Shown here: positions 1-32,144 of the stretch, piece after piece | Layout of the letters: each line of letters begins with the position of its first letter | Position numbering within the stretch: the stretch's first letter is position 1 | Source of the DNA: a virus | Strand: one strand, 5' to 3' | DNA length: 35,488 nucleotides | IMG/VR virus record: IMGVR_UViG_3300036719_001048 | Coordinates: 1-35,488 of that record | Made by a program: the position numbers and the translations under genes | Notes under the pieces: generated by a model | Told to the model about the DNA's origin: nothing | The model's input: the letters and a program-made list of their open reading frames with translations, nothing else | Database searches by the model: none

Positions 1-185
1 CAGTTTGTGCGTTGATACCGCCCCTGTAAAGTTCCTCAATAGATTTCGGTTCTGCAGCATCGCAGTACACGGGCTTGCGGTCGCTGATATGATCCTTCAC
101 TTCCCTGCTAATTTCAGATGGCGTTAAACCCGATTTGTAAATCAGTTGCTTTACATAATTTGCCCCCTGGTAATGGCATACCTTG
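1..185. repeat. Terminal direct repeat, left copy (circular-assembly overlap)
   Basis: Bases 1-185 match 35304-35488 with a single difference (A at 128, T at 35431). The large terminase frame continues exactly across the join, so this looks like the overlap left when a circular or circularly permuted genome was written as a line, not a true inverted or mobile repeat. The difference falls in the third base of Gly270 of the terminase (GGT versus GGA) and is silent, which suggests real strain variation in the sampled population. Confidence 0.93.
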
Positions 186-937
186 ACAAGTGCAAGCGGG
201 TGAACGTATCCAAAGTCTAATCCATAGAACACATCCCCCCCTTCGGGTAACTCATCTGTTATTTGCCATTGGGTATAAATAATCTCCTTTGCTGCGCCAC
301 GCTCACCGAGTCCGTAAACCTTCCACATGAAATCATCGGGTAATAGCTTGTAACTTTCTATGGTATCAATCTGAATCTGCGAAAGGTTGCCGAGGTTATT
401 TAGGTAGGTAGAATGTATGCGTTTGTTAATCGGGTTGTCCGATACTTCGTACACCCATGATACGAAGTCCGCAGGATTCCAGTCGAGAAATATCTTACCC
501 GTTGTACGCATCGCCAGTTGGTCAAATAACGCCTTACGGATTAGGTTGGCTTCATTAACAAATAGTATATCTCTGCCCGGCCCCCTTGCTTTGCCCTCAT
601 CTTCAAGTCCAAATAGTTCGATATAGCTGCCATTATCGAATCGGTATATGAAATCGGTGTAGCTAAATTTTTTATCATCCCATAGATGCCATTCTTCCAT
701 GATAGTCTTAAAGTCCCTGTATGCACCACGTTTAATGTGAGGTAGTGAGTGGGATACAATAGAGATGCGGATGTTTTTGGCATTCTTATCGGCTGCAATG
801 GAGATAAGCAGTTGCACTATGCTATAGGACTTGCTACTACGTGAGCCGCCCTCATTACAGATTATAGGGGCATCGCTTTGGTATGCTTCTACATTCTTAA
901 AGAATACATCCGTTGCTCTAATCTGTTTTAATTCCAC
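1..937 (-). CDS. terL: Terminase large subunit, N-terminal and central part (runs off window edge)
   Basis: This is the DNA-packaging motor ATPase and nuclease. Translation from GTG at 937 gives 312 codons to the window edge and continues in frame at 35303 down to 35074, for a full protein of 388 residues. Walker A is GGSRSSKS (30-37), Walker B ILFVNEAN (124-131), and the RNase H-like nuclease has acidic residues in YGLDFGY (Asp241) and YCDAAEP (Asp293), with the third in the other segment. The length and motifs fit the PBSX/Terminase_3 type. An in-frame TAA lies just upstream and there is no ATG before Walker A, so GTG at 937 is the likely start; it overlaps the end of the preceding methyltransferase gene by 20 bases, suggesting translational coupling. 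The small terminase is far upstream, separated by a glycan-modification cassette. Confidence 0.93.
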   Translation of the reverse strand, partial: MELKQIRATDVFFKNVEAYQSDAPIICNEGGSRSSKSYSIVQLLISIAADKNAKNIRISIVSHSLPHIKRGAYRDFKTIMEEWHLWDDKKFSYTDFIYRFDNGSYIELFGLEDEGKARGPGRDILFVNEANLIRKALFDQLAMRTTGKIFLDWNPADFVSWVYEVSDNPINKRIHSTYLNNLGNLSQIQIDTIESYKLLPDDFMWKVYGLGERGAAKEIIYTQWQITDELPEGGDVFYGLDFGYVHPLALVKVCHYQGANYVKQLIYKSGLTPSEISREVKDHISDRKPVYCDAAEPKSIEELYRGGINAQT

Positions 938-1496
938 AGGTCTTAAATTCAGTTAACGTACAAAACTCTTCTTTAGTCTTTTGTAAAACCGCGTAAACAT
1001 TCCACCCATCAGTAGTATTGCCCATAGCAGCAACGCTACCAACATTGATAAGGTTATAACCGCAGATTGCAGCCAAATTACGATAGAACGCTTCGGTGTA
1101 GTAGTTGAATCCATGTCCGGGCCAGTTGCCTGATTTGGGGTTTTCGGAGATGATATAACCTCCGAGTTTAACGAGGTTGTGTTTATTTTTCCAACAGTTG
1201 TATATGGCTTTGATGTCGTGCTTGCCATTGGTACCAACGTGTTCGGAGGTTCCTGCATCGACAAGTAAATCGTACTGCTTGTGGAATTTGTGGATTTTAG
1301 ATAAGTCCAGCGGGGATGAGCCGTTCTCACCCGAAATATCAATGGATTCGTATTCTTTTCCGGCATAGTAACTGTATTTAGTGTAAGGTGCGGGTAATGG
1401 CACCCGGTAATCGTTTTGCGCTCCGAGGTCTACCACCGATTGTATGTGTGGCAGGTAGGGGTCTATTAGTTTTGTTGTTTCGTGAGTGTAGCCCAT
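918..1496 (-). CDS. Class I SAM-dependent methyltransferase-like protein
   Basis: A 192-residue protein with a Rossmann-type methyltransferase layout: motif I-like VVDLGAQN (21-28), an acidic strand end YESIDIS (49-55) and a post-motif strand YDLLVDAGTSEHV (75-87), followed by KLGGYIISENP. Motif I is shortened compared with the usual DxGxGxG, so the substrate and even activity are uncertain. It is the last gene of the cassette between the small and large terminase genes, 1 base after the neighbouring methyltransferase. A role in methylating a sugar or a sugar precursor is inferred from the neighbouring glycosyltransferases. Its end overlaps the terminase start. Confidence 0.75.
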   Translation of the reverse strand: MGYTHETTKLIDPYLPHIQSVVDLGAQNDYRVPLPAPYTKYSYYAGKEYESIDISGENGSSPLDLSKIHKFHKQYDLLVDAGTSEHVGTNGKHDIKAIYNCWKNKHNLVKLGGYIISENPKSGNWPGHGFNYYTEAFYRNLAAICGYNLINVGSVAAMGNTTDGWNVYAVLQKTKEEFCTLTEFKTCGIKTD

Positions 1497-1497
1497 A

Positions 1498-2112
1498 TTA
1501 TTTCTTTAGATGTACCACTATATCCCTGTGGTCGGGTGTTAGGTTACGGCTAACAATTTTGAATTTATGCTTCATTATATCAACCGTTCTATCATCTTGG
1601 TAAAAATGCCCTATTAACATTCTATCCCCTAACTTGTACTTGCTCCAGTCATCGAAGTCGGGAAATTGTGCTTTCAGTTTATCAAAGTTACTAATCATTA
1701 TCACACAATCACCGCCCTTCTTCATCACTCTGTAAATAGATTGTAAATACTCTTTGATGGCATCATTTGAGAAATGGCAAAATACTCCGTAACTGAAAAC
1801 GAAGTCGATTGAGTTGTCATCTATTCCGGTGCAGTAGTAGTCTTGATTATCTAATTCCTTGTACTTCACATTATGATACCTTACTCCATCATGTATTGGT
1901 ATTACATCTATTCCGATTACATTATCGAACTGCTCTGATAGTACTTTAGTGAATACACCTCCCCCGCATCCTATCTCTAAACAGGTTTCAACACCACCAA
2001 ACGGATAGATAATTCGGTTAATTACTTCCTGTATGCCTATCCCATAGGTAAACGCTTCATAGTATCCATTGCTGCCCCAAAAGTTAATGAATTGCTCTTT
2101 GGTGAAGTCCAT
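1498..2112 (-). CDS. Class I SAM-dependent methyltransferase
   Basis: A 204-residue methyltransferase of the Methyltransf_11/25 type. Motif I is textbook: LEIGCGGG (45-52). It is followed by an acidic residue at the end of strand 2 (VIGIDV), the motif IV-like strand IDFVFSYGVFCHF (102-114) and the post-strand RVMKKGGDCVIM. These show a small-molecule or glycan methyltransferase fold, but the substrate cannot be read from the sequence. Start and upstream stop overlap as TAATG (2110-2114), so it is probably translationally coupled to the 58-residue protein before it. Confidence 0.88.
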   Translation of the reverse strand: MDFTKEQFINFWGSNGYYEAFTYGIGIQEVINRIIYPFGGVETCLEIGCGGGVFTKVLSEQFDNVIGIDVIPIHDGVRYHNVKYKELDNQDYYCTGIDDNSIDFVFSYGVFCHFSNDAIKEYLQSIYRVMKKGGDCVIMISNFDKLKAQFPDFDDWSKYKLGDRMLIGHFYQDDRTVDIMKHKFKIVSRNLTPDHRDIVVHLKK

Positions 2113-2288
2113 TACTCGTTGGGTTGTTTAGGTTCACTAAATGTTGTATCAAATGCTGCTATTGCATTATTTGCCTCGAACCATGCGGATTCCCATCCGG
2201 CGTTAGGCTTTTTCATGCATTCCAAATACACCTCCAACCATAACTGCTTCCTTTGTCGCTTGTGTATTACTTTTTCTCTGTCATTCAT
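2112..2288 (-). CDS. Small hypothetical protein, 58 aa
   Basis: ATG at 2288 opens a 58-residue frame ending in TAA at 2112-2114, filling the gap between a glycosyltransferase-like gene (stop 2 bases upstream) and a methyltransferase whose ATG overlaps this stop. The N-terminal half is basic (MNDREKVIHKRQRKQLWLEV), the rest amphipathic and acidic, without membrane segment or known motif. The tight packing on both sides is the main evidence that it is translated. Function unknown. Confidence 0.7.
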   Translation of the reverse strand: MNDREKVIHKRQRKQLWLEVYLECMKKPNAGWESAWFEANNAIAAFDTTFSEPKQPNE

Positions 2289-2290
2289 AA

Positions 2291-3028
2291 CTAATCCTTT
2301 ACCCCCCAGTTAATAAAATAAGGTTCAACAGGTAGATAGTGCCTATAAGCTAACCCTCCGTACGGCTGAACAGGAATCCCTGCTAAATTCATCAATCCGG
2401 ATAGCAAAGCCTGGTCATGTCGGCTGCTGATAAATTGCGGATTAACCGATTCGTTGTGATGAAAGCAGTTCTCCTTCGCTCCCTTTATCCACTTTTCAAA
2501 GATAGGCATAGTCTTGGGGTGGTCGAAGTCAAACACAATGCAACACGCCATAATTTGGTACATGGTAATAACATCCCTATAGCTATTTAGCCCTAAGAAC
2601 TTGATTTGATGGTCGGGTATGTACTTGTGTAGCGGATGGCCTTCGTTATTCCATGCTACTATCCCATGTTGGCCGGCTAATTCCCACAACGGATCGGGAT
2701 TCTGATGTACCCTAATTGTTGAATCACACCAAATAATTTTCCGGTATCCCATCTCCAATGCCTCCGCTACCATAAACGGCTTGAATTGATACGGCATATT
2801 CTGGTGATTCCATGACTTACCCCATTTCTCTGTATTAGGCCAATCACCGAGGTGAATCTTACGCTCAAGGTATTCATCCACATACCCATCCACACTACGA
2901 AAGTGAGTATCGTAGTCGGGTGCTTTGCGGTCTATACTTCTGATTAGTCCTAATTGCGCCTCGTTGTAGTTTTCCCTGCCTGTAGAAGCAAGGGATACGA
3001 TTACTTTACCGGATGTTATCTGGCCCAT
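2291..3028 (-). CDS. Glycosyltransferase-like protein (GT-A type, glycogenin-like)
   Basis: A 245-residue protein. KPFMVAEALEMGYRKIIWCDSTI (83-105, quoted in two parts: KPFMVAEALEMGYRK and IIWCDSTI) resembles the core of GT8/DUF-type sugar transferases, where a hydrophobic strand ends in a D-x-[DST] nucleotide-sugar/metal site. A later segment RHDQALLSGL with a following hydrophobic stretch also fits such enzymes. It overlaps the FkbM-like methyltransferase gene by 13 bases and sits in the cassette between the terminase genes. The acceptor and sugar are unknown; modification of a virion or host-surface glycan is inferred from context. Confidence 0.75.
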   Translation of the reverse strand: MGQITSGKVIVSLASTGRENYNEAQLGLIRSIDRKAPDYDTHFRSVDGYVDEYLERKIHLGDWPNTEKWGKSWNHQNMPYQFKPFMVAEALEMGYRKIIWCDSTIRVHQNPDPLWELAGQHGIVAWNNEGHPLHKYIPDHQIKFLGLNSYRDVITMYQIMACCIVFDFDHPKTMPIFEKWIKGAKENCFHHNESVNPQFISSRHDQALLSGLMNLAGIPVQPYGGLAYRHYLPVEPYFINWGVKD

Positions 3029-3615
3029 ATTACATTTTCTAAGTTAGTTAATAAACATTTCGTTAACCCTGCCTTATTGCAGTAATCTTTGATAAGATGA
3101 AATAAGTCAATATTGCCGTTATGCTCAATGCATACCATTTGCGTATGCTTTAGGTTAATTTGTTCTAATATCTCGAAATCTACACCCTCAGCATCAATAG
3201 AGATGAAATCAAAGAACTTGAATGGGGAGTTCTTAATTAGGGTGTTGTAAGTCCATACCTCGGTCATGCGCTCCTTAAATTCCGTACCCGGCCATCGTTT
3301 AGTTTCAGTACGTTTGATTGTACTAAGTAGGGATACATCCCCCTTGCCCAAATGGTTGCCCATCTCATGGAACGTACAATGCCCATCTGTTTCACCTATT
3401 GCTACATTGAACTTGTGTACCATAGGATTGGCTAATATCCGGTTAAACGCTTCCTCGCTTGGTTCTACAAGCACACCGCTCCACCCCTGTAGCTGCAATG
3501 CGTAGGTATTGGATAGGGTAACGCCATCGTTGGCACCAATGTCAAGGAAGAATCCTTTGCGGGATTGGAAGTAGGCGAGTATTATATCCTGCTCGTTGTT
3601 TTGGGAGTATCTCAT
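3016..3615 (-). CDS. FkbM-family methyltransferase
   Basis: A 199-residue protein with the FkbM hallmarks: FLDIGANDG (23-31) as SAM-binding motif I, GVLVEPS as the strand-2 acidic site, and ISIDAEGVD (138-146), the characteristic I-D-x-E-G-x-[DE] motif. FkbM enzymes methylate hydroxyl groups, often on sugars of lipopolysaccharide or secondary metabolites. It lies between two glycosyltransferase-like genes, which supports O-methylation of a glycan. Its ATG overlaps the stop of a 24-codon ORF (ATGA), implying coupling. Confidence 0.9.
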   Translation of the reverse strand: MRYSQNNEQDIILAYFQSRKGFFLDIGANDGVTLSNTYALQLQGWSGVLVEPSEEAFNRILANPMVHKFNVAIGETDGHCTFHEMGNHLGKGDVSLLSTIKRTETKRWPGTEFKERMTEVWTYNTLIKNSPFKFFDFISIDAEGVDFEILEQINLKHTQMVCIEHNGNIDLFHLIKDYCNKAGLTKCLLTNLENVIWAR

Positions 3616-3686
3616 TGTACTTTCAGTTGAATGGTATTTTCAAGCATCTTAAATTGTTTCATACCCGGCATTGTAAAGTAATTCAT
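3612..3686 (-). CDS. Tiny ORF, 24 aa, coupled to the FkbM gene
   Basis: ATG at 3686 encodes 24 residues beginning MNYFTMPGMKQFKMLE and stops in a TGA that overlaps the ATG of the FkbM methyltransferase. It begins 2 bases after the stop of another tiny ORF. No motif is visible. It may be a real micropeptide or simply a leader that delivers ribosomes to the FkbM start; only the packing supports it. Confidence 0.4.
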   Translation of the reverse strand: MNYFTMPGMKQFKMLENTIQLKVQ

Positions 3687-3688
3687 AG

Positions 3689-3766
3689 TTAATACTTATC
3701 TTTTTGAGGTATTTGGCAAATAAAAATGTAGGCAATAATAATGAGGATGATAAATAGTAGTTTCAT
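3689..3766 (-). CDS. Tiny membrane peptide, 25 aa
   Basis: ATG at 3766 encodes 25 residues: a Lys then an uninterrupted hydrophobic run (LLFIILIIIAYIFIC) and a polar, Lys-rich tail. This is a single transmembrane helix with a short C-terminal tail. It starts 3 bases after the stop of the 96-residue gene and ends 2 bases before the next ATG. The region is clearly more AT-rich than its neighbours. Function unknown. Confidence 0.5.
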   Translation of the reverse strand: MKLLFIILIIIAYIFICQIPQKDKY

Positions 3767-3769
3767 TTT

Positions 3770-4060
3770 TTAATCAATTTGATGTAATTCATATTTTTTT
3801 GTAATTTCAGCAAAGTTTTCTTTTAGAAATTGTTTTGCATCAGCGATTGAATTGCTTTCTCTTTTTAGAATAATCCATTTCCACTTGCAATTAGGGTTGC
3901 CATCTTCGTTTATGTCTTTTTTATTAACCATAAACCTAATTTTATGAGGAAATTCATCATCAATATTTCCTACTTTTTTCTTATTTAATTTAATGTGGTG
4001 GTAGTCCGGATAAAAAGAACGATATCTACCAGCAGAATTTTCTGTTTTGAAAGTAAACAT
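3770..4060 (-). CDS. Hypothetical protein, 96 aa
   Basis: A 96-residue, Lys/Asn-rich soluble protein (MFTFKTENSAGRYRS start). It looks like an alpha/beta domain, with CKWKWIILKRES strands followed by a helix DAKQFLKENFAEITKKYE. Base composition is markedly AT-rich compared with the adjoining glycosyltransferase genes, as expected of a recently gained accessory gene. No family is recognised. Confidence 0.7.
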   Translation of the reverse strand: MFTFKTENSAGRYRSFYPDYHHIKLNKKKVGNIDDEFPHKIRFMVNKKDINEDGNPNCKWKWIILKRESNSIADAKQFLKENFAEITKKYELHQID

Positions 4061-4072
4061 AATTAATTCATT

Positions 4073-4150
4073 TTAGTAAGTAAAAAATATGCCCCTGCTA
4101 CCCTTTTGAATAGTTTTTTCTAATTGCTCTACCGCCGTCTGTTGTGCCAT
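4073..4150 (-). CDS. Tiny ORF, 25 aa, starting MAQQTAVEQLE
   Basis: ATG at 4150 gives 25 codons to TAA at 4073-4075. The opening MAQQTAVEQLE resembles the TAVEWL start of small proteins that are common in Bacteroidota phages (from memory, not checked). Here it is cut short, so it may be a remnant of a longer gene. It fills the gap between the GT2 gene and the 96-residue gene. Confidence 0.4.
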   Translation of the reverse strand: MAQQTAVEQLEKTIQKGSRGIFFTY

Positions 4151-4154
4151 GTTA

Positions 4155-4697
4155 TTATTTATTAGTTCTAAACTGATAGTGATACAATTCCTTCTCAATC
4201 TTCACCTCTGTCTTAATCAGCCCGGCATTATGTATAGCAGTAGCCCACGCATAATCCTCACCAATACGTATATCCATAAACGGGAATGCCAGCGCAATCT
4301 CCCTGCGTATTGGTACAATGTGATTCGGGTAGCGGTAATACGCCCCGCCCTTCGCCTCATAGCCGTAATCCTTTGATATGTACCACTTACGTTCATCCCT
4401 GCCATCTGTGGTCATTGTGCCGTTAAATACGATAGCATCTGGATTACTCTCGGCGGCCGTTAGTATGTCTTTAACATAGGTACTTGCTACCATATCATCA
4501 TCATCAATGAATACCACGTACTTTCCTGTGCTGCGTTGTAGGAGTATATTTCTCTTTTTTCCGGTACTCATAGTACCATTATCAGATTCAGTTAGAACTT
4601 CAACCTCCGGTGTGCGTTGCGGTGTAATTACCTGTAGCAACTGCGATAGGTAGCCTATGCGTTGGGGGAGGGTGCAAATTAGGATGGATAGGGTCAT
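4155..4697 (-). CDS. Family 2 glycosyltransferase
   Basis: A 180-residue GT-A enzyme. It opens with the typical strand MTLSILICTLPQR, has GKKRN (46-50) before the metal/nucleotide site FIDDDD (63-68; the D-x-D motif), and GEDYAWA (146-152) as the putative base-containing ED motif. It transfers a sugar from a nucleotide-sugar donor; the acceptor is unknown. The start overlaps the stop of the preceding glycosyltransferase gene (ATGA), so the two are probably co-translated. It is short for GT2 but keeps the catalytic core. Confidence 0.88.
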   Translation of the reverse strand: MTLSILICTLPQRIGYLSQLLQVITPQRTPEVEVLTESDNGTMSTGKKRNILLQRSTGKYVVFIDDDDMVASTYVKDILTAAESNPDAIVFNGTMTTDGRDERKWYISKDYGYEAKGGAYYRYPNHIVPIRREIALAFPFMDIRIGEDYAWATAIHNAGLIKTEVKIEKELYHYQFRTNK

Positions 4698-5353
4698 ACA
4701 TTCTGTTTTGGAAATCCGGCTTTTGACCGCCGGATATAGGTTATCTCATCCGCACGGTAAAACGATTGAGTATGATTAAGCAGCGCATCTACAGGCTCAC
4801 CAGTCCATGCCGGGTGGTAATGGTCAAATATCCGCTTATCTACGTATTTATACGCATTGCACATCTTCGCCACATCCATAGCCTCGTTATCGCACCAAAG
4901 GGATTCGTATTGTGGGTGGTAGATGTACCCGAACCTATCATAGTACGTTCTACCCATGATTGACATCGTTGGTAGCAGGTGATTAACCCGGCCATCGGGA
5001 AAGTGGATGAATAGGTCTAAGTTACCCTCGAAGGCATTGATAATGTCAATGTCATAGCCCTGCTTTAGAAATCGCATATCATCGGACATATTCACAACTA
5101 TATCCCCCTGCCATCCTTCCATCCCCCTATTGATTGCATGCACCTTGCTTTTGGACTTACCCATTGTGATAAACACATTAGGGAACTTCAGCAGGTCGGC
5201 AAGTTCATTTGAGTTTAGCGTAACCGTATCATCATCATCTACGGTTAACCCTACGGTGTACTTCTTAGAATGAGAATATGCCTGAATGGTAGCGAATGCA
5301 GCAGCCATCTTTTCGGGTCTGCTACGTGTTGCAAAGTTGTAATGTATGTGCAT
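4694..5353 (-). CDS. Glycosyltransferase-like protein (GT-A fold)
   Basis: From ATG at 5353 this is 219 residues. It starts MHIHYNFATRSRPEKM, then TVGLTVDDDDT (33-43) with a DDDD metal-binding-like run, a second acidic strand NMSDDM (88-93) and LWCDNEAMD (152-160). These fit a divergent GT2-like nucleotide-sugar transferase. The frame stays open upstream to 5524, but that extension overlaps the small terminase gene and contains an inverted repeat with a TAnnTTTG box just before 5353, so the internal ATG is preferred. First sugar-modification gene after the small terminase. Confidence 0.75.
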   Translation of the reverse strand: MHIHYNFATRSRPEKMAAAFATIQAYSHSKKYTVGLTVDDDDTVTLNSNELADLLKFPNVFITMGKSKSKVHAINRGMEGWQGDIVVNMSDDMRFLKQGYDIDIINAFEGNLDLFIHFPDGRVNHLLPTMSIMGRTYYDRFGYIYHPQYESLWCDNEAMDVAKMCNAYKYVDKRIFDHYHPAWTGEPVDALLNHTQSFYRADEITYIRRSKAGFPKQNV

Positions 5354-5444: not shown

Positions 5445-5714
5445 TTATACAATCGGGTGGGATTTGGTGTCGGGGATAATTTGAATAATAGTGGTCGGCA
5501 TTGGGTTATCGGGATCGTTGGCAACCTGTAGCGGGATGAGTTTACTTGCCAAGCGGTAAAATTCGGTGGGGTTTTGCTCTCCCCACTCTAACATATTAAC
5601 CCCTGGCTTAAGTTGCATTTCGTGGAACGCATCAGTAATAACCTCACGTACCGAGCGGGTGAAGTGATTAACCGCCCCCTTTGTTCTGCCTCCTGTCTTT
5701 TTTCCAATAGCCAT
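5445..5714 (-). CDS. terS: Probable terminase small subunit
   Basis: An 89-residue protein starting MAIGKKTGGRTKGAVNHFT, a G-R-x-K-G-x-x-N lead-in seen at the start of many phage small terminases, then a helical region (SVREVITDAFHEM) and LEWGEQNPTEFYRLASKLIPLQ, again typical of small-terminase-like proteins. It would recognise phage DNA and load it onto the large subunit. It is the first gene of the late operon, 20-odd bases after a good promoter. It is separated from the large terminase by about 4.5 kb of accessory genes, which is unusual. Confidence 0.72.
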   Translation of the reverse strand: MAIGKKTGGRTKGAVNHFTRSVREVITDAFHEMQLKPGVNMLEWGEQNPTEFYRLASKLIPLQVANDPDNPMPTTIIQIIPDTKSHPIV

Positions 5715-5738: not shown

Positions 5739-5771
5739 CAAAGGTACTCACATACCGCCCAAACCACCAAA
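5739..5771 (-). promoter_or_regulatory. Late promoter, Bacteroidota type
   Basis: On the minus strand TTTG (5771-5768), a 21-base spacer, then TACCTTTG (5746-5739) match the -33 TTTG / -7 TAnnTTTG pattern. Transcription would start near 5733 and reach the small terminase ATG at 5714. The -33 end overlaps the first AATTCTCA repeat of the array at 5770-6004, so a protein bound there could block or assist RNA polymerase. The 12-mer TACCTTTGTAAT is repeated before two other late genes. Confidence 0.75.
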
Positions 5772-6004
5772 TTCTCAGATATTCCATGTCAAATTCTCAC
5801 GTAACACATTGATAATGAGTGAATTCTTCAATATTCTCAAATTCTCACTCACCCTTTAGTATAGTATGGTATTAGATATATAAATATATAGAATTATTAT
5901 TTTCTTTAAATTCTCGAGCAAGTGAGAATATGGGCAGTTAGCCTATGATTATCAATAAGTTATAAATTCTCACTTGGTGAGAATATTGAGAATATGGTGA
6001 GAAT
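5770..6004. repeat. Iteron array, ten AATTCTCAC-type sites
   Basis: Ten copies of AATTCTCAC or its complement GTGAGAATT lie here. Forward sites are near 5770, 5792, 5832, 5840, 5909 and 5965; reverse sites at 5922, 5977, 5986 and 5997. Sites 5966-5973 and 5977-5984 form a perfect inverted repeat ATTCTCAC-TTG-GTGAGAAT, and the last three reverse copies sit 9-11 bases apart, about one helical turn. The array is in an AT-rich 500-base gene-free stretch between the replication operon and the late promoter. It could be a replication origin, an operator/enhancer of the late promoter, or both. Confidence 0.75.
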
Positions 6005-6014
6005 ATGGTCAATT

Positions 6015-6031
6015 ATCGGAACTTGTCCGAT
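6015..6031. repeat. Inverted repeat ATCGGA-ACTTG-TCCGAT
   Basis: Six-base perfect arms with a 5-base centre, 11 bases beyond the last iteron. Its unit differs from the iterons, so it would be a site for another protein or a short hairpin. The remaining bases up to the terminator at 6103 show nothing else recognisable. Confidence 0.5.
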
Positions 6032-6220: not shown

Positions 6221-8422
6221 CTACATTTTCTCATACTGCCCATGCGCCACCCTCTTTACCACCCTTGCAAAGTCAGCCCTCCGAATCGCATTAAAAAACC
6301 TCTTAGGTTTAATATTGAATCTTAGGCAGAGCAAATCTACCTCCTTTGTTGTGAACTTTGGCGGTAGGTTATCAACTAACAGGCGAAGGTCTGCAGGAAG
6401 GCCGGATTCCGTTTCCGCACACAACTCACTAATTATCGATATAGTACTCTCCGCATAGTACCTGTATAAATTATATGCTTTGTTGACTATTTCCACCGTT
6501 ATAACGGGTTTTAGTGCATTTTGGCATATACTCACAACATGGCACATACGGGGGAAGTATGCGCTCATTTTAGCTTCAGCACCCATAATGTACTCCTCGG
6601 CCTTACCTGCCATACGCCTATTTGCATCCGCTAAATTCTGCCTGTGATACTTAGTGTATAGTGTTTTGGCTTCTGGTGTAATCTCAATCCGTATGGGCGC
6701 ACAATCTCCGGCTGCAAATTCTTTGTTAATGCGGTAAAGGTGTGTTATTAGTTCTTTCCACTCCTTACACATTTGCCGGCCACCGCTAAACGGGTCGGCA
6801 TCTTCATTCAGTTTTAAGTAATCGGATTTAATCATTAGGAAACGTGAAGCAAATCCCGACTTAATCTTATCGGCCCCGAATATGTGCGCCAACCGAGATG
6901 GCTGCGTACCCATCAAAAGGGATATGTTAAGTGATTTAACAACCCTTTCTTTCTCACGATCCGCTCTGATTTGTGTGTACCTGCCCCCGGTAAATGCTTG
7001 GGTGAAAAATGAAATGGCATCGTTATTCGCTTTGTGCGCCCCTGCATTGAGGATTGTTTCCGCTTCATCATGATATACACCCATGCCTGCCTCCTGGTCT
7101 TGCATTAGGGCTATGTAACCCTCGGTTGTGCCATCAACTGCAAATGGATGGAATCGTTTTGGTTTTGGTTTACCGAATGATTCCTTATTTACGTTGGCGG
7201 CTGCTTTCTCAAGTAGCCAGTTATCCATTGCTAATTTGTAGGCCGCATCTTCTGATTTTAGTAGGTCGGCCAACGGTTCCTCACACATAGCTTTAAATGC
7301 CGGAGTTTTACCCACCGATACCGGGGCAATCATAATTGCAAATACGATGTTTTTTACATTGTGAAAGTCGGATGAGTAGCAGTTACCTGCAAGCGATGAG
7401 ATAGTCCATATTCCGGCCGTTGCGAGAAACTCTGGGCATAGGCTCATTTCAGTAGCTACTTCGTGCAACGAATTGTTAATAAGTTGTGGAAAAATACTAT
7501 ACGGGTAACCCTGTTCTACGGGTTCGATTTCGAGCGCTTTAAGTACGGCATCCCAATCCCTACCGAGGTGATAGAACAGAATAAACGATGGAGGAAGGCA
7601 CCAGACAGGATACTGCTCTTTGTTATGCCAGTTGGGAAAGTTGCTCATGGATGCGCTGAATATCATCACCCTGCGAGCGTTGTAATATACCTTAGCGGAT
7701 ATGCCGGCCGAATCACTACCCTTGCGCCTGTAGGCTTGGAATTTGTCATTCTTGCCGTACTTGTAGCCCTGTATGGGTAGTAGGCCTATATCGGATAGTA
7801 TGGCATCGAATGAGTTGTCATCTATTGACTTGTCATATTCTGCCAACTGCGATTCATACCCTGCCGGGTAGCTGATTGCTTTCTTACTCGGATCGTACTT
7901 TGGCTTATACTCGTTAAAGTATTGTGAAACTTCTATAAGATAGTTGTATTCCGATTCGGTCAACTCCTGCACATCCTCCATACTTTGGTGAAATTCTGTA
8001 TAACCGGGTGTTGGAAATGTGTAAACTACAGGCCCATTTGAATACAGGGCAATTACCTCGTTACCCTCCGGCGATTCGGCAAGCGGTGTTTTGCTCGGTA
8101 GCGCTGCGTAGTTTAGCCATACGTGGTATCCGGCGTTGCGGGTTTGCTCTATGAATACCTTGCTAAAGATTTCGGGAGCCTCGTTAGTTATAATTGCCAT
8201 CCACTTACTGAATAGTTCTTTATCCTTAGTATTCTTAAGGTCAAAGTCTAAGCAGCCGTAGTTGTTGCCTGTGAGAATCATTAACCCATTATCAGTAGGG
8301 CGCAGGTGCAGGTCATCCGGATTAGACCAATTGCGATGCGATACGGGTTGCTTTGTTGCGCTATCCCATTGTATGGGGATGACCTTGAGGCCGAGTGATT
8401 GGTAATCGGTGTATTGGTGCAT
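6221..8422 (-). CDS. Primase-polymerase / DUF3987-type helicase fusion
   Basis: A 733-residue replication protein. The N-terminal part (about 1-210) is a prim-pol domain: YGCLDFDLK (55-63) with the catalytic D-x-D, and TRNAGYHVWL (94-103) with the conserved His. The C-terminal part (about 310-640) is a DUF3987-like P-loop ATPase: APVSVGKTP (366-374) as Walker A and VYHDEAE (449-455) as Walker B, then MGTQPSRLAHIFG as a sensor-like region. It should prime and unwind phage DNA. It is the last gene of the replication operon, followed by a hairpin and a strong terminator, and lies beside the iteron array. Confidence 0.9.
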   Translation of the reverse strand: MHQYTDYQSLGLKVIPIQWDSATKQPVSHRNWSNPDDLHLRPTDNGLMILTGNNYGCLDFDLKNTKDKELFSKWMAIITNEAPEIFSKVFIEQTRNAGYHVWLNYAALPSKTPLAESPEGNEVIALYSNGPVVYTFPTPGYTEFHQSMEDVQELTESEYNYLIEVSQYFNEYKPKYDPSKKAISYPAGYESQLAEYDKSIDDNSFDAILSDIGLLPIQGYKYGKNDKFQAYRRKGSDSAGISAKVYYNARRVMIFSASMSNFPNWHNKEQYPVWCLPPSFILFYHLGRDWDAVLKALEIEPVEQGYPYSIFPQLINNSLHEVATEMSLCPEFLATAGIWTISSLAGNCYSSDFHNVKNIVFAIMIAPVSVGKTPAFKAMCEEPLADLLKSEDAAYKLAMDNWLLEKAAANVNKESFGKPKPKRFHPFAVDGTTEGYIALMQDQEAGMGVYHDEAETILNAGAHKANNDAISFFTQAFTGGRYTQIRADREKERVVKSLNISLLMGTQPSRLAHIFGADKIKSGFASRFLMIKSDYLKLNEDADPFSGGRQMCKEWKELITHLYRINKEFAAGDCAPIRIEITPEAKTLYTKYHRQNLADANRRMAGKAEEYIMGAEAKMSAYFPRMCHVVSICQNALKPVITVEIVNKAYNLYRYYAESTISIISELCAETESGLPADLRLLVDNLPPKFTTKEVDLLCLRFNIKPKRFFNAIRRADFARVVKRVAHGQYEKM

Positions 8423-8434
8423 GGGTGGTGGTGG

Positions 8435-8860
8435 TTATAGGGTGTCAAATATAAGGAAGAATTCCTCTGGCGTATGCACAAACTCATAAATCCCCCCCGC
8501 TTGCCGTTCCCGTTGCTGCTCGGCAAGTTGTTCGGGGCGGGGTTTGTCTTTGCCTACTTTAATTTCTATCATAACTGATTTGCCTTTCACGGTAGCCGAA
8601 ATATCAGCCGTTCCCTTCCGTGTTGCGGATGGGATAAACTTCCCGTTAATCTGCCTACCCATAGTGTTAATACGTGTAGCCCTGTATCCCGACCAGTTAA
8701 GGAAGTTGATTATAAAGGTTGTCAGTCCATTGGATTTCGTAACTACAGGTGTAGGCGGCCCGGTGTAGAATCCATCCTTAACAAATGTTGGACTACGTTG
8801 ATTAACGTAATTGTAATGGGCGGTGTTATAGCGTATCTTCCAGAGGGGGGGTTGTTTCAT
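8435..8860 (-). CDS. VRR-NUC family nuclease
   Basis: From ATG at 8860 this is 141 residues. KGTADISAT (82-90) and VMIEIKVGKDKPRPEQ (96-111) are the core of the VRR-NUC/Holliday-junction resolvase-like fold: G-T-x-D, then E-x-K, then a Gln on the next helix (EQLAEQQR). Such proteins cut branched DNA in phage replication and recombination. A TTG upstream at 8893 would extend it, but the ATG is preferred. The start overlaps the methyltransferase end by 35 bases, and the primase follows 12 bases after the stop. Confidence 0.87.
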   Translation of the reverse strand: MKQPPLWKIRYNTAHYNYVNQRSPTFVKDGFYTGPPTPVVTKSNGLTTFIINFLNWSGYRATRINTMGRQINGKFIPSATRKGTADISATVKGKSVMIEIKVGKDKPRPEQLAEQQRERQAGGIYEFVHTPEEFFLIFDTL

Positions 8861-9857
8861 ATTGCTGAATTGCTTTAAATATTTGTAATACAACTTGGGG
8901 TACTATTGCGTTTCCAGCGGCTTTGATTGATTCGTTTCGCCACTTAGAAAAGGTAATGTTGTCCAATTGGGAGGAAAGCCCATCATTTCGAGAACAAATA
9001 GGGGATTGAGTTGGGAAGTTTTGCCAATATCTTGGGTTTTCATTAGTTCTCCTATCAACGATGAACGATTTAATTGACTTTCCGGAAATGTTGCATTTTT
9101 GCCCTCGTTTACTGTCGGTGTCGGCAACATCCCCATACTCATTGCCCGTGTCAGCGTTACCGAGTGCATTGAACCCTCCTTCACCTGGCTGCTCTTCATC
9201 GTTGCCGTTGCGTTGGTTGAGTCCATTGCCGTTGGGGTGGGGAGTAAGCCGTTCATTTTTACTGATGTTGTCAAGTCCGTTTGTTTTTTCTTTCCGTTTT
9301 GGTCTCTCCAGTAATTCCCCTCCCAAGTCCATCCCTCTTTCGGTTCGTAATCCATTTGCATACAGCTTGGAGTAGGCAACAAACCAAACCCTATCTCTTC
9401 GGTGGGGGCAAGAGCCGACACCTGCAGCTGGCAGTACATACGGCCATACTTCGTACCCCGCAGCTTCCAAGTCAGCTTGCACCTCGTGGAATACCAATCC
9501 CCCTGACCAATTAACAAGGCCGAGAACGTTCTCGCCCACAACCCAACGTGGTTGAATTTCTCTAATTGCTCGCAGCATACTCGGCCAGAGATGTCGCTCA
9601 TCTTCTTTTCCTTTTCGTTTTCCGGCACTTGAGTACGGTTGGCACGGAAAACCACCCGTGAGTATGGCAATTTTTCCTCGGTGAATAGTGAAGTCTGTTT
9701 TAGTGATGTCATGATATGAAATTGATTGTGGCCAATAATGATGTAATACTTTTTTACCAAACTCATTCCATTCGCAATGGAATACGTTTTCCCAACCCAT
9801 CCATTCAGCAGCTAAGTCAAAGCCGCCTATGCCGGAGAATAATGATCCGTGGGTCAT
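8826..9857 (-). CDS. DNA (cytosine-5) methyltransferase
   Basis: A 343-residue C5 methyltransferase with all key motifs in order: I LFSGIGGFDLA (6-16), IV GGFPCQPYS (68-76, catalytic Cys72), VI VGENVLG (108-114), VIII HRRDRVW (152-158) and X GNAIVPQ (about 315-321). The target-recognition region (about 165-305) is poor in hydrophobic residues and has ADTD-type repeats (GNADTGNEYGD, DVADTDSKRG). It would methylate phage DNA against host restriction; no matching endonuclease is seen. Most of the gene is also open in the +1 frame, encoding another protein-like sequence. Start overlaps the previous stop (ATGA). Confidence 0.95.
   Translation of the reverse strand: MTHGSLFSGIGGFDLAAEWMGWENVFHCEWNEFGKKVLHHYWPQSISYHDITKTDFTIHRGKIAILTGGFPCQPYSSAGKRKGKEDERHLWPSMLRAIREIQPRWVVGENVLGLVNWSGGLVFHEVQADLEAAGYEVWPYVLPAAGVGSCPHRRDRVWFVAYSKLYANGLRTERGMDLGGELLERPKRKEKTNGLDNISKNERLTPHPNGNGLNQRNGNDEEQPGEGGFNALGNADTGNEYGDVADTDSKRGQKCNISGKSIKSFIVDRRTNENPRYWQNFPTQSPICSRNDGLSSQLDNITFSKWRNESIKAAGNAIVPQVVLQIFKAIQQYETTPPLEDTL
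8903..9712 (-). CDS. Overlapping-frame protein inside the methyltransferase gene (LLPTP-repeat protein)
   Basis: In the +1 frame relative to the cytosine methyltransferase, ATG at 9712 opens 269 codons starting MTSLKQTSLFTEEK (the frame is open to an earlier ATG at 9766). The product looks like a real protein: SGRVCCEQLEKFNHVGLW, then GWYS-like DWYSTRCKLTWKLRGTKY, three repeats LLPTPSCM, LLPTPTAMD and MLPTPTVNE, and an end with SQLNPLFVLEMMGFPPNW and SKPLETQ. I recall this pattern from phage and Bacteroidota proteins linked to cytosine methylases. Each LPTP repeat lies opposite a repeated short motif of the methylase frame (VAYS, LTPHPNG, VADTDS). Function unknown; it could assist or modify the methylase, or be an antirestriction factor. 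Confidence 0.62.
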   Translation of the reverse strand: MTSLKQTSLFTEEKLPYSRVVFRANRTQVPENEKEKKMSDISGRVCCEQLEKFNHVGLWARTFSALLIGQGDWYSTRCKLTWKLRGTKYGRMYCQLQVSALAPTEEIGFGLLPTPSCMQMDYEPKEGWTWEGNYWRDQNGKKKQTDLTTSVKMNGLLPTPTAMDSTNATATMKSSQVKEGSMHSVTLTRAMSMGMLPTPTVNEGKNATFPESQLNRSSLIGELMKTQDIGKTSQLNPLFVLEMMGFPPNWTTLPFLSGETNQSKPLETQ

Positions 9858-11160: not shown

Positions 11161-11196
11161 AAAATTACTGGGTATCGGTTGCCAGTGCCGTTTAGA

Positions 11197-11287
11197 GCCA
11201 TGTACGGGACTCGAACCCGTATCTCTCCGCTACAATGCGAAGGCGTTATCCCAAGTCGGTATTCATTCCCGATTACGCTAACATGGC
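11197..11287 (-). tRNA. tRNA-like gene, atypical (possibly Thr-UGU)
   Basis: On the minus strand GCCATGT (11287-11281) pairs perfectly with ACATGGC (11203-11197), and ACGGG-TTCGAGT-CCCGT is a perfect T arm. The anticodon arm reads CTTCGC-ATTGTA-GCGGAG, with only 6 unpaired bases if all pairs form; TGT would be the anticodon. The D region is far too long: GCGT and ACGC enclose about 28 bases. The total is 91 nt and the 3' end is TCTA, not CCA. It is therefore a degenerate tRNA, one with an insertion, or a tRNA mimic. Confidence 0.6.
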
Positions 11288-13169: not shown

Positions 13170-13559
13170 ATGACAACAGTAGTACTTTCAACCCCGCAAT
13201 TGGCCCAACAATACGCAGAGCGTACGGGCTTACAGTATGACAGAAAAGGCAACTCCTTCGTATGTTACGATGATTCGGGCGAGCCTATCTACACGATTAA
13301 ATTTTACATGCAGCGCACGGAGTTAGTAGATATTCGCACGGTGTATGAAATCTTTAGCCCGAACGCTAATCGGTATGAGGAATACCCTACAAAGGAGCGT
13401 ATGCTCGAAGATTTGGATTTTAACGAAATGCACATCCCTTACAAGTCTATCCGGTCAACTTACAACAATGGGTCTATTTTGGTAAGTCGGGAATTAATGC
13501 AGGAGTTATTTGCCTTGCCATTTAGCGCAGAATTGCTTAACTTACAAGGGCATGGTTAG
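13170..13559 (+). CDS. Hypothetical early protein, 129 aa
   Basis: A 129-residue acidic protein starting MTTVVLSTPQLAQQYAERTG. The first 60 residues resemble a small alpha/beta fold (helix QLAQQYAER, strands SFVCYDD and PIYTIKFYM). No motif or membrane segment is seen, and no family is recognised. It follows a promoter-bearing small gene and is followed within 10 bases by a strong terminator, so it may be the main product of this transcript. Small acidic early phage proteins are often inhibitors of host factors, but nothing here proves that. Confidence 0.82.
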   Translation: MTTVVLSTPQLAQQYAERTGLQYDRKGNSFVCYDDSGEPIYTIKFYMQRTELVDIRTVYEIFSPNANRYEEYPTKERMLEDLDFNEMHIPYKSIRSTYNNGSILVSRELMQELFALPFSAELLNLQGHG

Positions 13560-13568
13560 TTTTGGTTT

Positions 13569-13597
13569 CCCCCTGGCAGAAGTGTCGGGGGGTTTTT
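13569..13597 (+). terminator. Rho-independent terminator inside the rightward operon
   Basis: CCCCCTGGCA-GAAG-TGTCGGGGG(G) forms a 10-base-pair stem (two wobble pairs) with a 4-base loop, followed by TTTTTATC. It lies between the 129-residue gene and the DnaA-like gene. No TAnnTTTG promoter is seen after it, so the three following genes would depend on read-through or antitermination. Confidence 0.88.
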
Positions 13598-13623
13598 ATC
13601 ACTTCAATTTCAAACAATGCACA

Positions 13624-29478: not shown

Positions 29479-30005
29479 AATACAGGTGAGGTTTTAGTGT
29501 ACATCTGACAAGTGCGCCATGCTTTCTGGCATACGCCCATCGTTTCATCGAACGCCCCTCTATTCTCGTACAAGTGATTCACCTGGTCAAGTATTGCCGT
29601 TTTCAATGGGTTGGGTAGTGCGGTGAATCCAACATTATACACCGCCCGCATTTTGTCAATAGCAGGAAAGGTAATTACCGGATGCTTACCGCCCATGATA
29701 GTTTTATCGGTTAATTCGGTACCGGAGGTTACATCGTACAGAGTAATAGATGAAGTAATCGGCCCGTGTGGAAACTGAAACCATCCCCCTTTATTGCAGA
29801 ACCATACTTCGGCCTGCTTAGTGATAAGGGATAGCCCGGTAGCTTTCTCAATTATCATTCGTGCGCTTCGTATCATTTCGGATATTTGCGCATCTTCAGA
29901 GGTGTGAGAAACACGAATGTATAATTTCGCCTCTGCAAGCGTTACCGGTTCGGCATAGCTTACCTCCGTGATGTTAGAATCAATTATGTAAGAGTAGTTA
30001 CCCAT
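29475..30005 (-). CDS. Head-tail connector (HK97 gp6-like)
   Basis: A 176-residue protein. EPVTLAEAKLYIRVSHTSED (19-38) with the following helix ISEMIRSARMIIEKATG is the classic start of gp6-like connectors (P-V-[ST]-L-x-E-A-K-x-x-L-R-x-x-x-x-x-x-D). The middle strands (WFQFPHGPITSSITLY) and C-terminal helices complete it. It binds the portal ring. Its start overlaps the glycosyltransferase end by 22 bases. Confidence 0.9.
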   Translation of the reverse strand: MGNYSYIIDSNITEVSYAEPVTLAEAKLYIRVSHTSEDAQISEMIRSARMIIEKATGLSLITKQAEVWFCNKGGWFQFPHGPITSSITLYDVTSGTELTDKTIMGGKHPVITFPAIDKMRAVYNVGFTALPNPLKTAILDQVNHLYENRGAFDETMGVCQKAWRTCQMYTKTSPVL

Positions 30006-30931
30006 TGCTCGAATTTTATTAGATTGTTTTCCGGCTGCAATTCATTTGCCCTATCAAATGCCTTATTACTGCAAATTTCGTAGTTTTCCTCCACATTTCG
30101 TATGGCCTGCACCCACTCATCTAATCTATCCTGTTTGCAGTAGGTTGCAGCATCTCCACAATTCTCACGCAGCCCCGGTAGATTAGTACAAATAACCGGA
30201 ATACCCGATGCCATTGCTTCGGTAGCCGTTCGCCCCCATGATTCGTAGTGGGATGGCATGAGTAGTATTTTCGTTTTGCGATATGCGATACGTATATCTG
30301 ACTGATTAGCCATGTATTCAACATTCGGTAACTCTTTGTATATCTGTTGTCCGTACCCGCCCTGTATGGCTAAGAACTGCTTATCCGGCATCGCCTCTGC
30401 AATCCGGTAGAACATTTCAGCACCTTTGTTGTGATTGAGATTAATTAGGGTTATCTTATTGCCTTTCTCACCCCTGTAATGGTTGATGTCAACAGGTGGT
30501 TGCAATACGAATCCGTTGTTAGCATACTTACATTCCTCACTATTCCAGTACGAATTATACACTACATTCAACTCCCTGTGCGTACGTACGGATGAGTACA
30601 TGAAAGTATTATGTGCAAACCAAACGGCAGGTTTCTTTGTGCTTTTGCAGTCAATAGCAACATCGCCTGCAAAATCTAATTGTGTGAAGATTATATCAGC
30701 CCATTCATGATGGAAGTACCAATCGTTGCTTCTATTGAATACATGGATTCCATCGTATTCGTAGTTCTCATTGTTCATCTTTGAGGTCATCACCTTTACC
30801 CGGTGGCCTCTGCTCATCAACCACTTGTTGATGTCGTGGGCGTTCCATTCTGATCCAGATTTTGCCATTGGCAAGTAACTCTGTACGTGCCACAATATGC
30901 GTAGTCTTTTTGGTTGGGTGTATTCGCTCAC
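29984..30931 (-). CDS. GT4-family glycosyltransferase inside the head module
   Basis: A 315-residue GT-B enzyme with GTG start at 30931. The N-terminal Rossmann domain has LRILWHVQSYLPMAKSG (10-26), with a G-[ST]-E acceptor-side loop, and WADIIFTQLD. The C-terminal half has KILLMPSHYESWGRTATEAM (221-240) with the catalytic E-x7-E pair (Glu230 and Glu238), typical of GT4. It is placed between the capsid gene and the head-tail connector, behind a terminator. Substrate unknown; capsid or host-glycan modification is possible. Confidence 0.9.
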   Translation of the reverse strand: MSEYTQPKRLRILWHVQSYLPMAKSGSEWNAHDINKWLMSRGHRVKVMTSKMNNENYEYDGIHVFNRSNDWYFHHEWADIIFTQLDFAGDVAIDCKSTKKPAVWFAHNTFMYSSVRTHRELNVVYNSYWNSEECKYANNGFVLQPPVDINHYRGEKGNKITLINLNHNKGAEMFYRIAEAMPDKQFLAIQGGYGQQIYKELPNVEYMANQSDIRIAYRKTKILLMPSHYESWGRTATEAMASGIPVICTNLPGLRENCGDAATYCKQDRLDEWVQAIRNVEENYEICSNKAFDRANELQPENNLIKFEQWVTTLT

Positions 30932-30995: not shown

Positions 30996-32144
30996 TTAGA
31001 TAGTAGCGTAAATAGAAGAGTTAGGAAGCATCAAGTTGATAGCCTCATAACATTCGATTCTTGCAGTAACCATGTTAGTTACGAAGTTGTTTTGATCTTC
31101 GTAAGATAACTCAATGTTCAAACCGTTAACCTCTACACGCTCAATAAATGAGTTGTCAAGTACCAACGCACGGCTTGCAGGAATCCAGTTAACGCCAACG
31201 ATAGGCACGCCAACAAGATTCAAAGCACCGTTAGCACCGATACCTAAAGAACCTGCACCTAAGTAATAACCGTTGGTGAAAGATTCAATCAGCAAAGTGC
31301 TATAAGTAGCATTGCTCACGAAGATTACAGAAGGACTGAAATCAGCAGCACGCTGATTACCAATCAACTGAATCAAATCTCCGAGGTTGGTAGAAGCAGA
31401 AGTGGTAGTAACACCAGTAGAGGCAGCCGATACGGTAGAGAAGAAAGAACTATTCTCTGCCTTAAAGAAATCACGAGTCAACAAACGTGGAAGCGTCTGG
31501 CTCATGAAAGGCAAAGATGCAAGCATCTGGCGGCTAAACTTGCTGAATCCGGCGATGAACTGATTAACAGTCTTTACTTCAGTTAAAGAATAGTTATTCT
31601 CTTGCTTGAGTGAACCTTCAAGTTGTGCAGCGATGTTGTTCGCATTACCAGTAGCCTCACGATAGGTTACATACAAACCTGTAGGGCTTTGAACGGTAGG
31701 CACGAAATCACGCATATTTACCAACTGCGCAGGTTGGGTAGCTTGGCGGCTATTGTAAGTAGCAACTGAATCACCGGAAAGGTTAGTAGCCAAAGTGATA
31801 GTCTTTACCTCGGGCATTTCAATCAGAACACGGCCATTCTTTTTGATTTCGGCTTCGATGTTACGGCCTTCTAACTTCTCGGATAATACTTCGTTGAAAC
31901 TCTTTGCAGACTCAGGATTGCCGGCTTTTACCTTAATGGTAAGGGCATCAAATTGATTTTGCATAACTCCTTTGAACTCGGCAAGGTCAGCAGGTGTAAC
32001 TACTGAATCTAATTTGCTTTTAAGTTCGGTAACTACTAATTTGGCATCAGCCGCATCAGTTTTTGCGTTGGCAGAATTTGCCAATACTTGCGTAAGATTA
32101 TCTCCAATGGATTTTACCTCCGCAGCGATTTGTTCGTTTGTCAT
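30996..32144 (-). CDS. Major capsid protein, HK97 fold
   Basis: A 382-residue protein right after the prohead protease. Residues 1-100 form a coiled-coil delta/scaffold domain (helices with KTDAADAKLVVTELKSKL), to be cut off on maturation. The rest shows the HK97 pattern: VNMRDFVPTVQSPTGLYVTY (about 145-165), a spine helix region with FSKFSRQMLASLPFMSQTLP, NATYSTLLIES, and GVPIVGVNWIPASRALVLD near the P domain. A terminator follows immediately. Confidence 0.92.
   Translation of the reverse strand: MTNEQIAAEVKSIGDNLTQVLANSANAKTDAADAKLVVTELKSKLDSVVTPADLAEFKGVMQNQFDALTIKVKAGNPESAKSFNEVLSEKLEGRNIEAEIKKNGRVLIEMPEVKTITLATNLSGDSVATYNSRQATQPAQLVNMRDFVPTVQSPTGLYVTYREATGNANNIAAQLEGSLKQENNYSLTEVKTVNQFIAGFSKFSRQMLASLPFMSQTLPRLLTRDFFKAENSSFFSTVSAASTGVTTTSASTNLGDLIQLIGNQRAADFSPSVIFVSNATYSTLLIESFTNGYYLGAGSLGIGANGALNLVGVPIVGVNWIPASRALVLDNSFIERVEVNGLNIELSYEDQNNFVTNMVTARIECYEAINLMLPNSSIYATI

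What the first reader, a model, noticed from the sequence alone, without database searches (positions are those of the whole stretch)
918..5353. Glycan-building and methylating cassette inserted between the two terminase genes
Terminase small and large subunits normally adjoin. Here about 4.4 kb separates them, holding three glycosyltransferase-like genes (4694-5353, 4155-4697, 2291-3028), an FkbM methyltransferase (3016-3615), two class I methyltransferases (918-1496, 1498-2112) and small ORFs, all overlapping or within a few bases. The set could build and O-methylate a sugar on capsid/tail proteins, or alter host surface glycans to block rivals. Being in the late operon favours virion decoration.
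Basis: partly seen in the sequence, partly recalled or inferred. Interest (0 to 1): 0.75.

Follow-up and report, generated by a model that had tools for sequence, protein, structure and literature searches.

The report
Phage genes for sugar-coating virus particles
A common, uncultivated freshwater phage (its host is probably a Bacteroidota bacterium) carries a conserved set of sugar-attaching and methyl-adding enzymes between its DNA-packaging genes, plus one more sugar enzyme beside its capsid gene, and most likely uses them to coat its own virus particles with a methylated glycan, as some mycobacterium phages do with theirs.

Summary
Between a terS-like gene (5445-5714) and terL (start 937) lie 4.5 kb of co-directional genes: two glycosyltransferases (GTs), a GT-like protein of unproven fold, an FkbM methyltransferase, two class I methyltransferases and small ORFs. 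Across IMG/VR, 32 of 32 relatives that reach across the interval keep the same five core genes in the same order, under purifying selection. A sister lineage (TerL ~71% identical) has terS touching terL and no cassette. (2) GT 4155-4697 is homologous to the N-terminal half of Che8 gp108; Che8 is reported to glycosylate its capsid. (3) One methyltransferase slot is exchanged between relatives: Methyltransf_11, TylF or nothing; Che8 gp108 fuses a TylF-like domain to this GT. Best explanation: a cytosolic pathway building an O-methylated glycan on virion proteins, probably the capsid. Host-surface and DNA modification are less likely (no membrane segments; no TET or thymidylate-synthase-like enzyme found). 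No glycan has been shown. New variant of a known kind.

The parts
5445..5714 (-). TerS-like small protein (89 aa), first gene of the interval
   Evidence: Position; phrog_11043 3.4e-9 (unknown function); GGRxKGxxN start and PDxxxxPI end resemble TerS adjacent to TerL in sister phages by eye, profile comparison weak
4694..5353 (-). Core gene 1: GT-A/GT2-like glycosyltransferase (219 aa)
   Evidence: phrog_14945 8.4e-14; PF00535 0.0099; conserved DDD and DNE motifs in A3; dN/dS 0.05-0.10
4155..4697 (-). Core gene 2: GT2 glycosyltransferase (180 aa), homologue of the Che8 gp108 N-terminal domain
   Evidence: PF00535 4.1e-8; phrog_14775 8e-39; Che8 gp108 34% over 181 aa, E 4e-28
4075..4150 (-). 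Very short ORF MAQQTAVEQLEK..., start shared with small accessory ORFs of relatives
3770..4060 (-). Accessory ORF (96 aa), not conserved
   Evidence: phrog_14973 1.2e-4 unknown function; tblastn hit only in the near-identical contig (L002, L085)
3016..3615 (-). Core gene 3: FkbM-family methyltransferase (199 aa)
   Evidence: PF05050 2.8e-16, TIGR01444 4e-13 over cut-off; dN/dS 0.04-0.07
2291..3028 (-). Core gene 4: GT-like protein of unproven fold (245 aa), motif KIIWCDSTIRV..NPDPLW
   Evidence: No profile or fold hit of its own; highly conserved, dN/dS 0.04-0.08
2112..2288 (-). Accessory small ORF (58 aa), variable
   Evidence: phrog_9711 2e-4 unknown function; patchy in relatives
1498..2112 (-). 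Exchangeable methyltransferase slot: Methyltransf_11 (204 aa); replaced by TylF or absent in relatives
   Evidence: PF08241 4e-15; 20/4/18 of 42 intervals; pS 0.3-0.5 where flanks are 0.7-0.8
918..1496 (-). Core gene 5: class I methyltransferase (192 aa), overlaps terL start
   Evidence: No sequence-family hit; AF2 pLDDT 75, VIA Z 13.7 to NodS, many class I MTases
2..937 (-). TerL (N-terminal 312 aa; remainder at 35488-35074)
   Evidence: PF04466 1.4e-9, phrog_2 2.5e-29; contig-end overlap 184/185
29984..30931 (-). Linked GT4 glycosyltransferase (315 aa) between major capsid and head-tail adaptor genes
   Evidence: PF00534 7.4e-17; present in all 11 cassette-lineage loci covering it, absent in 6 sisters
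30996..32144 (-). Major capsid protein (HK97 type), proposed substrate
   Evidence: PF05065 3.6e-10, phrog_10 2.2e-9

Best explanation
The interval plus the GT4 gene beside the capsid gene encode a soluble, phage-owned glycan pathway expressed with the head genes. Proposed steps: a GT (GT4 is the best candidate, as it abuts the capsid gene) puts a first sugar from a host nucleotide-sugar onto virion proteins in the cytoplasm, most likely the major capsid protein; GT4694, GT4155 and perhaps the GT-like 2291 protein extend it; the FkbM enzyme and MT918 O-methylate the chain; and an exchangeable last methyltransferase (Methyltransf_11, TylF or none) sets the terminal methylation, so that relatives display different surface glycans. 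Likely benefit: shielding particles, or varying their surface, against surface-binding molecules, grazers or adsorption traps. Shown here: enzyme families for most genes, strict conservation, gene exchange in one slot, linkage to the capsid gene, homology to one gene of the Che8 GT cassette. Inferred: co-expression, substrate, order of steps, sugars, benefit.
For: Families. Conserved core order 32/32 and purifying selection. GT4 directly after the capsid gene in all 11 cassette-lineage loci covering it (10 of them extending to the adaptor), capsid and adaptor adjoining (94-148 bp) in 6 cassette-less sisters. Diverged phages with capsid-FkbM-GT4 followed, where the contig reaches it, by the adaptor (L189-L193; L197 with FkbM directly after the capsid) or capsid-GT4-adaptor (L194, L195). 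A GT4 homologue lies between capsid and major tail genes in Streptomyces phage TurkishDelight. GT4155 homologous to Che8 gp108 (E 4e-28), which is fused to a TylF-like domain, the family that replaces MT1498 in relatives. Che8 and Corndog virion glycosylation by phage GTs as reported in PMC12363180 and PMC11256854. No enzyme has a membrane segment.
Against: No glycan, virion or host is in hand. The matching presence of cassette and GT4 rests on one lineage split, so it may be a single event; GT4 also occurs without the terS-terL cassette (L194). No homologue of Che8 gp110, the GT reported essential, was found by BLASTP. Capsid and tail-tube proteins show no Ser/Thr-rich extension relative to the sisters. 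The fold of 2291-3028 is unknown.
Confidence: 0.62

Rival explanations
1. The enzymes act on the host envelope (LPS, S-layer or capsule glycans) during infection and block adsorption of competing phages or re-adsorption of progeny.
For: Phage GTs of Gtr type do this in other systems (general knowledge); PHROGs file these GTs under 'moron, auxiliary metabolic gene and host takeover'.
Against: No enzyme has a membrane segment; no flippase or lipid-linked GT family was seen among the genes profiled; the genes sit in the head/packaging gene block with one GT abutting the capsid gene.
Confidence: 0.15
2. The cassette hypermodifies phage DNA with (methylated) sugars to resist restriction.
For: The phage has a C5 cytosine methylase (8826-9857); a sister lineage (L062, L063) has a TET/JBP oxygenase next to an unclassified 234-aa ORF, which could be a GT, just upstream of terS.
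Against: No TET/JBP or thymidylate-synthase-like enzyme found in this record (the TET search found its target in the L062 record); GT4155 is related to a GT from a capsid-glycosylating phage, and GT4 tracks with the capsid gene.
Confidence: 0.1
3. The target is a virion part other than the capsid (tail tube, tail fibre or spike), so that the glycan changes host range or receptor binding.
Against: GT4 lies beside the capsid gene, not the tail genes, in the window lineage and in diverged phages.
Confidence: 0.1
4. The interval is a passive hotspot collecting unrelated moron genes.
For: Small ORFs, an HNH endonuclease and DNA methylases come and go within it.
Against: Five core genes keep order in 32/32 loci under strong purifying selection.
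Confidence: 0.03

Closest known systems
Mycobacteriophage Che8 glycosyltransferase cassette (gp108-gp110)
   Same: Adjacent soluble GT genes; gp108 N-terminal GT homologous to window 4155-4697 (34%, E 4e-28) and fused to a TylF-like methyltransferase, the same family that fills the variable slot in relatives
   Different: Che8's cassette is at the genome's right end, not between terminase genes; no FkbM among its three genes and no adjacent GT4; no gp110 homologue found here; host Mycobacterium versus probable Bacteroidota host
Chlorovirus PBCV-1 A064R / A061L capsid glycan enzymes
   Same: Virus-owned, mostly soluble GTs with O-methyltransferases that cap the capsid glycan; loss of the methylating domain makes a distinct antigenic class (PMC9614988)
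   Different: Algal virus, N-glycan; no sequence homology tested or claimed
Streptomyces phage TurkishDelight gp20 and Gordonia phage Forza gp93-94
   Same: Homologues of GT4 (TurkishDelight gp20) and GT4155 (Forza gp93) placed among virion structural genes
   Different: Different gene sets; no experiment known to me
Gtr-type O-antigen conversion modules
   Same: Phage-encoded GTs
   Different: Need membrane GtrA/GtrB; no membrane segments here

Membership tests
Phage virion-glycosylation system (Che8 type) | Phage-encoded soluble glycosyltransferases | tested here: met
   GT2 and GT4 profiles over cut-off, one further GT by PHROG; no membrane segments
Phage virion-glycosylation system (Che8 type) | GT homologous to a member of the Che8 GT cassette | tested here: met
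   Che8 gp108 N-terminal domain vs 4155-4697, E 4e-28
Phage virion-glycosylation system (Che8 type) | Homologue of the GT reported essential (Che8 gp110) | tested here: inconclusive
   No BLASTP hit among the window proteins compared; remote homology not excluded
Phage virion-glycosylation system (Che8 type) | Glycan covalently attached to virion proteins | not testable with these tools
   Needs virions
FkbM methyltransferase (PF05050) | Profile score over curated cut-off | tested here: met
   3016-3615: 60.5 bits vs 22.7; TIGR01444 50 vs 37.7
GT2 glycosyltransferase (PF00535) | Profile score over cut-off | tested here: met
   4155-4697: 33.8 vs 23.3 bits; 4694-5353 stays below at 16.3
GT4 glycosyltransferase (PF00534) | Profile score over cut-off | tested here: met
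   29984-30931: 61.8 vs 26.4 bits
Class I SAM methyltransferase (918-1496) | Rossmann-type SAM-MTase fold | tested here: met
   AF2 model; VIA Z 13.7, rmsd 3.1, 155 aligned to NodS, many class I MTases
Glycosyltransferase (2291-3028) | Any GT profile or GT-A fold | tested here: inconclusive
   No profile hit of its own; one homologue GT8 E 0.05; AF2 pLDDT 54
Gtr O-antigen conversion | Membrane-embedded GtrA/GtrB-like proteins | tested here: not met
   Highest 19-residue hydropathy in the cassette enzymes and GT4 is 1.38, no transmembrane segment
Sugar-hypermodified phage DNA | Base-hydroxylating or hydroxymethylating enzyme (TET/JBP, thymidylate-synthase-like) | tested here: not met
   positive control

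The most novel reading that the evidence does not exclude
An abundant uncultivated freshwater lineage of probable Bacteroidota phages builds an O-methylated capsid glycan whose terminal methylation is switched by exchanging a single methyltransferase gene between relatives, a phage 'serotype' system outside the Actinobacteria phages in which virion glycosylation has been reported.
Probability: 0.35. Interest if true: 0.75.

Novelty: new variant of a known kind. Interest (0 to 1): 0.55.

Why it matters
Phage virion glycosylation by phage-encoded enzymes is documented, in the sources I could read, for a few mycobacteriophages. A conserved, capsid-linked GT/methyltransferase set in a common freshwater lineage would mean that particle glycosylation is far broader, with an exchangeable methyl cap that could alter how phages are recognised outside the animal immune system. 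It makes the question testable: which surface-binding agent in lake water selects for it?

Tried and rejected
Fold search for 2291-3028: AF2 model poor (pLDDT 54.5), Foldseek matches meaningless; PDB profile searches for 2291-3028 and 4694-5353 gave nothing usable; scans for distant relatives of 2291-3028 in viral contigs returned the same lineage only, and in genome contigs nothing. Profile comparison of the TerS-like protein with the sister TerS was weak (26% probability, 17 columns). Search for a Ser/Thr-rich acceptor tail on capsid or tail-tube proteins: none. Corndog records not held under the accessions tried; Freeman et al. 2023 not held, so it is cited only through other papers. One PHROG search failed because I gave wrong coordinates for one protein. 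Chance ORFs and a passive moron hotspot rejected on conservation and dN/dS.
Full report
What is there. The window is a 35,488-base virus record whose two ends overlap by 185 bp at 184/185 identity, so the genome is close to complete and circularly permuted; TerL runs over the ends. Nearly all larger ORFs read on the minus strand. In that direction the order is DUF3987 protein (6221-8422), a TerS-like protein (5445-5714), the interval in question, TerL (from 937), portal, head morphogenesis protein, protease, major capsid protein, a GT4 glycosyltransferase, head-tail adaptor, neck and tail genes. The gap between the terS-like and terL genes is 4,507 bp.

What the genes are. 3016-3615 is an FkbM methyltransferase (PF05050 2.8e-16; TIGR01444 above cut-off). 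1498-2112 is a Methyltransf_11-type class I methyltransferase (4e-15). 4155-4697 is a GT2 enzyme (PF00535 4e-8, phrog_14775 8e-39). 4694-5353 matches a PHROG glycosyltransferase (8e-14) but only weakly PF00535. 918-1496 has no sequence-family hit; its AlphaFold model (pLDDT 75) has the class I methyltransferase fold, best VIA Z 13.7 to the Nod-factor methyltransferase NodS, with many other class I enzymes close behind, so only the fold can be claimed. 2291-3028 could not be classified. None of these proteins has a transmembrane segment.

Conservation. TerL was used to collect relatives from IMG/VR. In the loci with TerL at least 80% identical that reach from GT4694 to TerL, 32 of 32 have the five core genes (GT4694, GT4155, FkbM, 2291, MT918) in the same order; the terS-terL gap is 3,624-5,558 bp in the 26 that show both genes. 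One locus (L046) carries a D12 DNA methylase directly upstream of TerL in the stretch held, where MT918 is expected. Median dN/dS is 0.04-0.18 for the core genes, close to TerL and portal. In a sister lineage with TerL about 71% identical (L062-L081) no cassette gene is detected, and in the 11 loci examined a TerS of 115 aa (131 aa with an upstream start in L062 and L063) overlaps the start of TerL. The insertion is therefore real and lineage-specific.

The exchangeable slot. Between 2291 and MT918, relatives carry either the Methyltransf_11 enzyme (20 of the 42 intervals, some from the same contigs), or a TylF-type methyltransferase (4; PF05711 1e-31 to 2e-27 for the three tested), or neither (18); none carries both, which with these numbers is not significant by itself. 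Where flanking genes have synonymous difference 0.7-0.8 from the window, the Methyltransf_11 gene has 0.3-0.5, so it moves between lineages by recombination. Small ORFs (many starting MAQQT), an HNH endonuclease (L009; same-length ORF at the same place in L014 and L091) and DNA methylases also come and go.

Link to the capsid. A GT4 glycosyltransferase (29984-30931) directly follows the major capsid gene. All 11 cassette-lineage loci that cover this place have it (10 of them reach the adaptor); in 6 sister loci without the cassette, capsid and adaptor genes are 94-148 bp apart with no GT. This contrast is one split of the tree and counts as one event. Independently, much more distant phages (L189-L193) have capsid-FkbM-GT4, followed by the adaptor where the contig reaches it, L197 has FkbM directly after the capsid, and L194 and L195 have capsid-GT4-adaptor with a small ORF overlapping TerL in the TerS position. 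A GT4 homologue lies between the capsid and major tail genes of Streptomyces phage TurkishDelight.

Link to a phage with reported virion glycosylation. GT4155 is 34% identical over 181 residues (E 4e-28) to the N-terminal domain of Che8 gp108, whose C-terminal domain is TylF-like. Che8 gp108-gp110 are adjacent. Other papers report that Che8 and Corndog glycosylate virion proteins and that Che8 gp110 is essential for it (PMC12363180; PMC11256854); the primary paper was not held. No gp110 homologue was found among the window proteins compared. In chlorovirus PBCV-1, virus-owned and mostly soluble GTs with O-methyltransferases build a capsid glycan, and loss of the methylating domain gives a separate antigenic class (PMC9614988); this is an analogy only.

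Most likely mechanism. Cytosolic enzymes expressed with the head genes add a first sugar to a virion protein (most likely capsid, most likely by GT4), extend it with two or three GTs, and O-methylate it with FkbM, MT918 and an exchangeable last methyltransferase. Shown: families, conservation, exchange, linkage, one homology. Inferred: co-expression, substrate, order, sugars, benefit. Rivals: host-envelope modification (no membrane component), DNA hypermodification (no TET or thymidylate-synthase-like enzyme; the TET search found its target in L062), tail or fibre decoration, and a passive hotspot (contradicted by the conservation).

Host. The nearest cultured matches are Bacteroidota phages: Flavobacterium phage 11b and Cellulophaga phage phi10:1 for the capsid, Parabacteroides and Bacteroides phages for TerL, and TerL 47% identical in a Paraflavitalea genome (Chitinophagaceae). 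Host assignment remains an inference, as does the freshwater habitat, which I take from general knowledge of the IMG study numbers rather than from a tool result.

Verdict. New variant of a known kind.

Noticed in passing
5760-6015: AT-rich intergenic stretch upstream of the terS-like gene with many copies of GTGAGAATAT / ATTCTCAC in both orientations; could be a packaging-recognition or regulatory site.
   Followed up: partly
L062:8071-9671 (also L063): Sister phages carry a TET/JBP oxygenase (PF12851 4.8e-12) next to an unclassified 234-aa ORF just upstream of TerS: a possible DNA hypermodification pair.
   Followed up: partly
L218:5101-8474: Probable prophage in Paraflavitalea pollutisoli has a weak GT9-like ORF (E 0.016), a methyltransferase and a Stealth_CR2-like ORF upstream of its terS/terL, a possible parallel glycan set in a cultured Bacteroidota host.
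   Followed up: partly
L046:48-752: A D12-class adenine DNA methylase lies directly upstream of TerL, where MT918 is expected.
   Followed up: partly
8826-9857: C5 cytosine DNA methylase (PF00145 2.4e-42) upstream of the DUF3987 gene.
   Followed up: no
13510-14055: Plus-strand ORF with a DnaA C-terminal DNA-binding domain (PF08299 1.4e-16), one of the few plus-strand genes.
   Followed up: no
27701-28141 and 22496-23185: Two genes both match the major tail protein PHROG 1407.
   Followed up: no
11195-11287: Single tRNA-Lys (CTT) gene.
   Followed up: no
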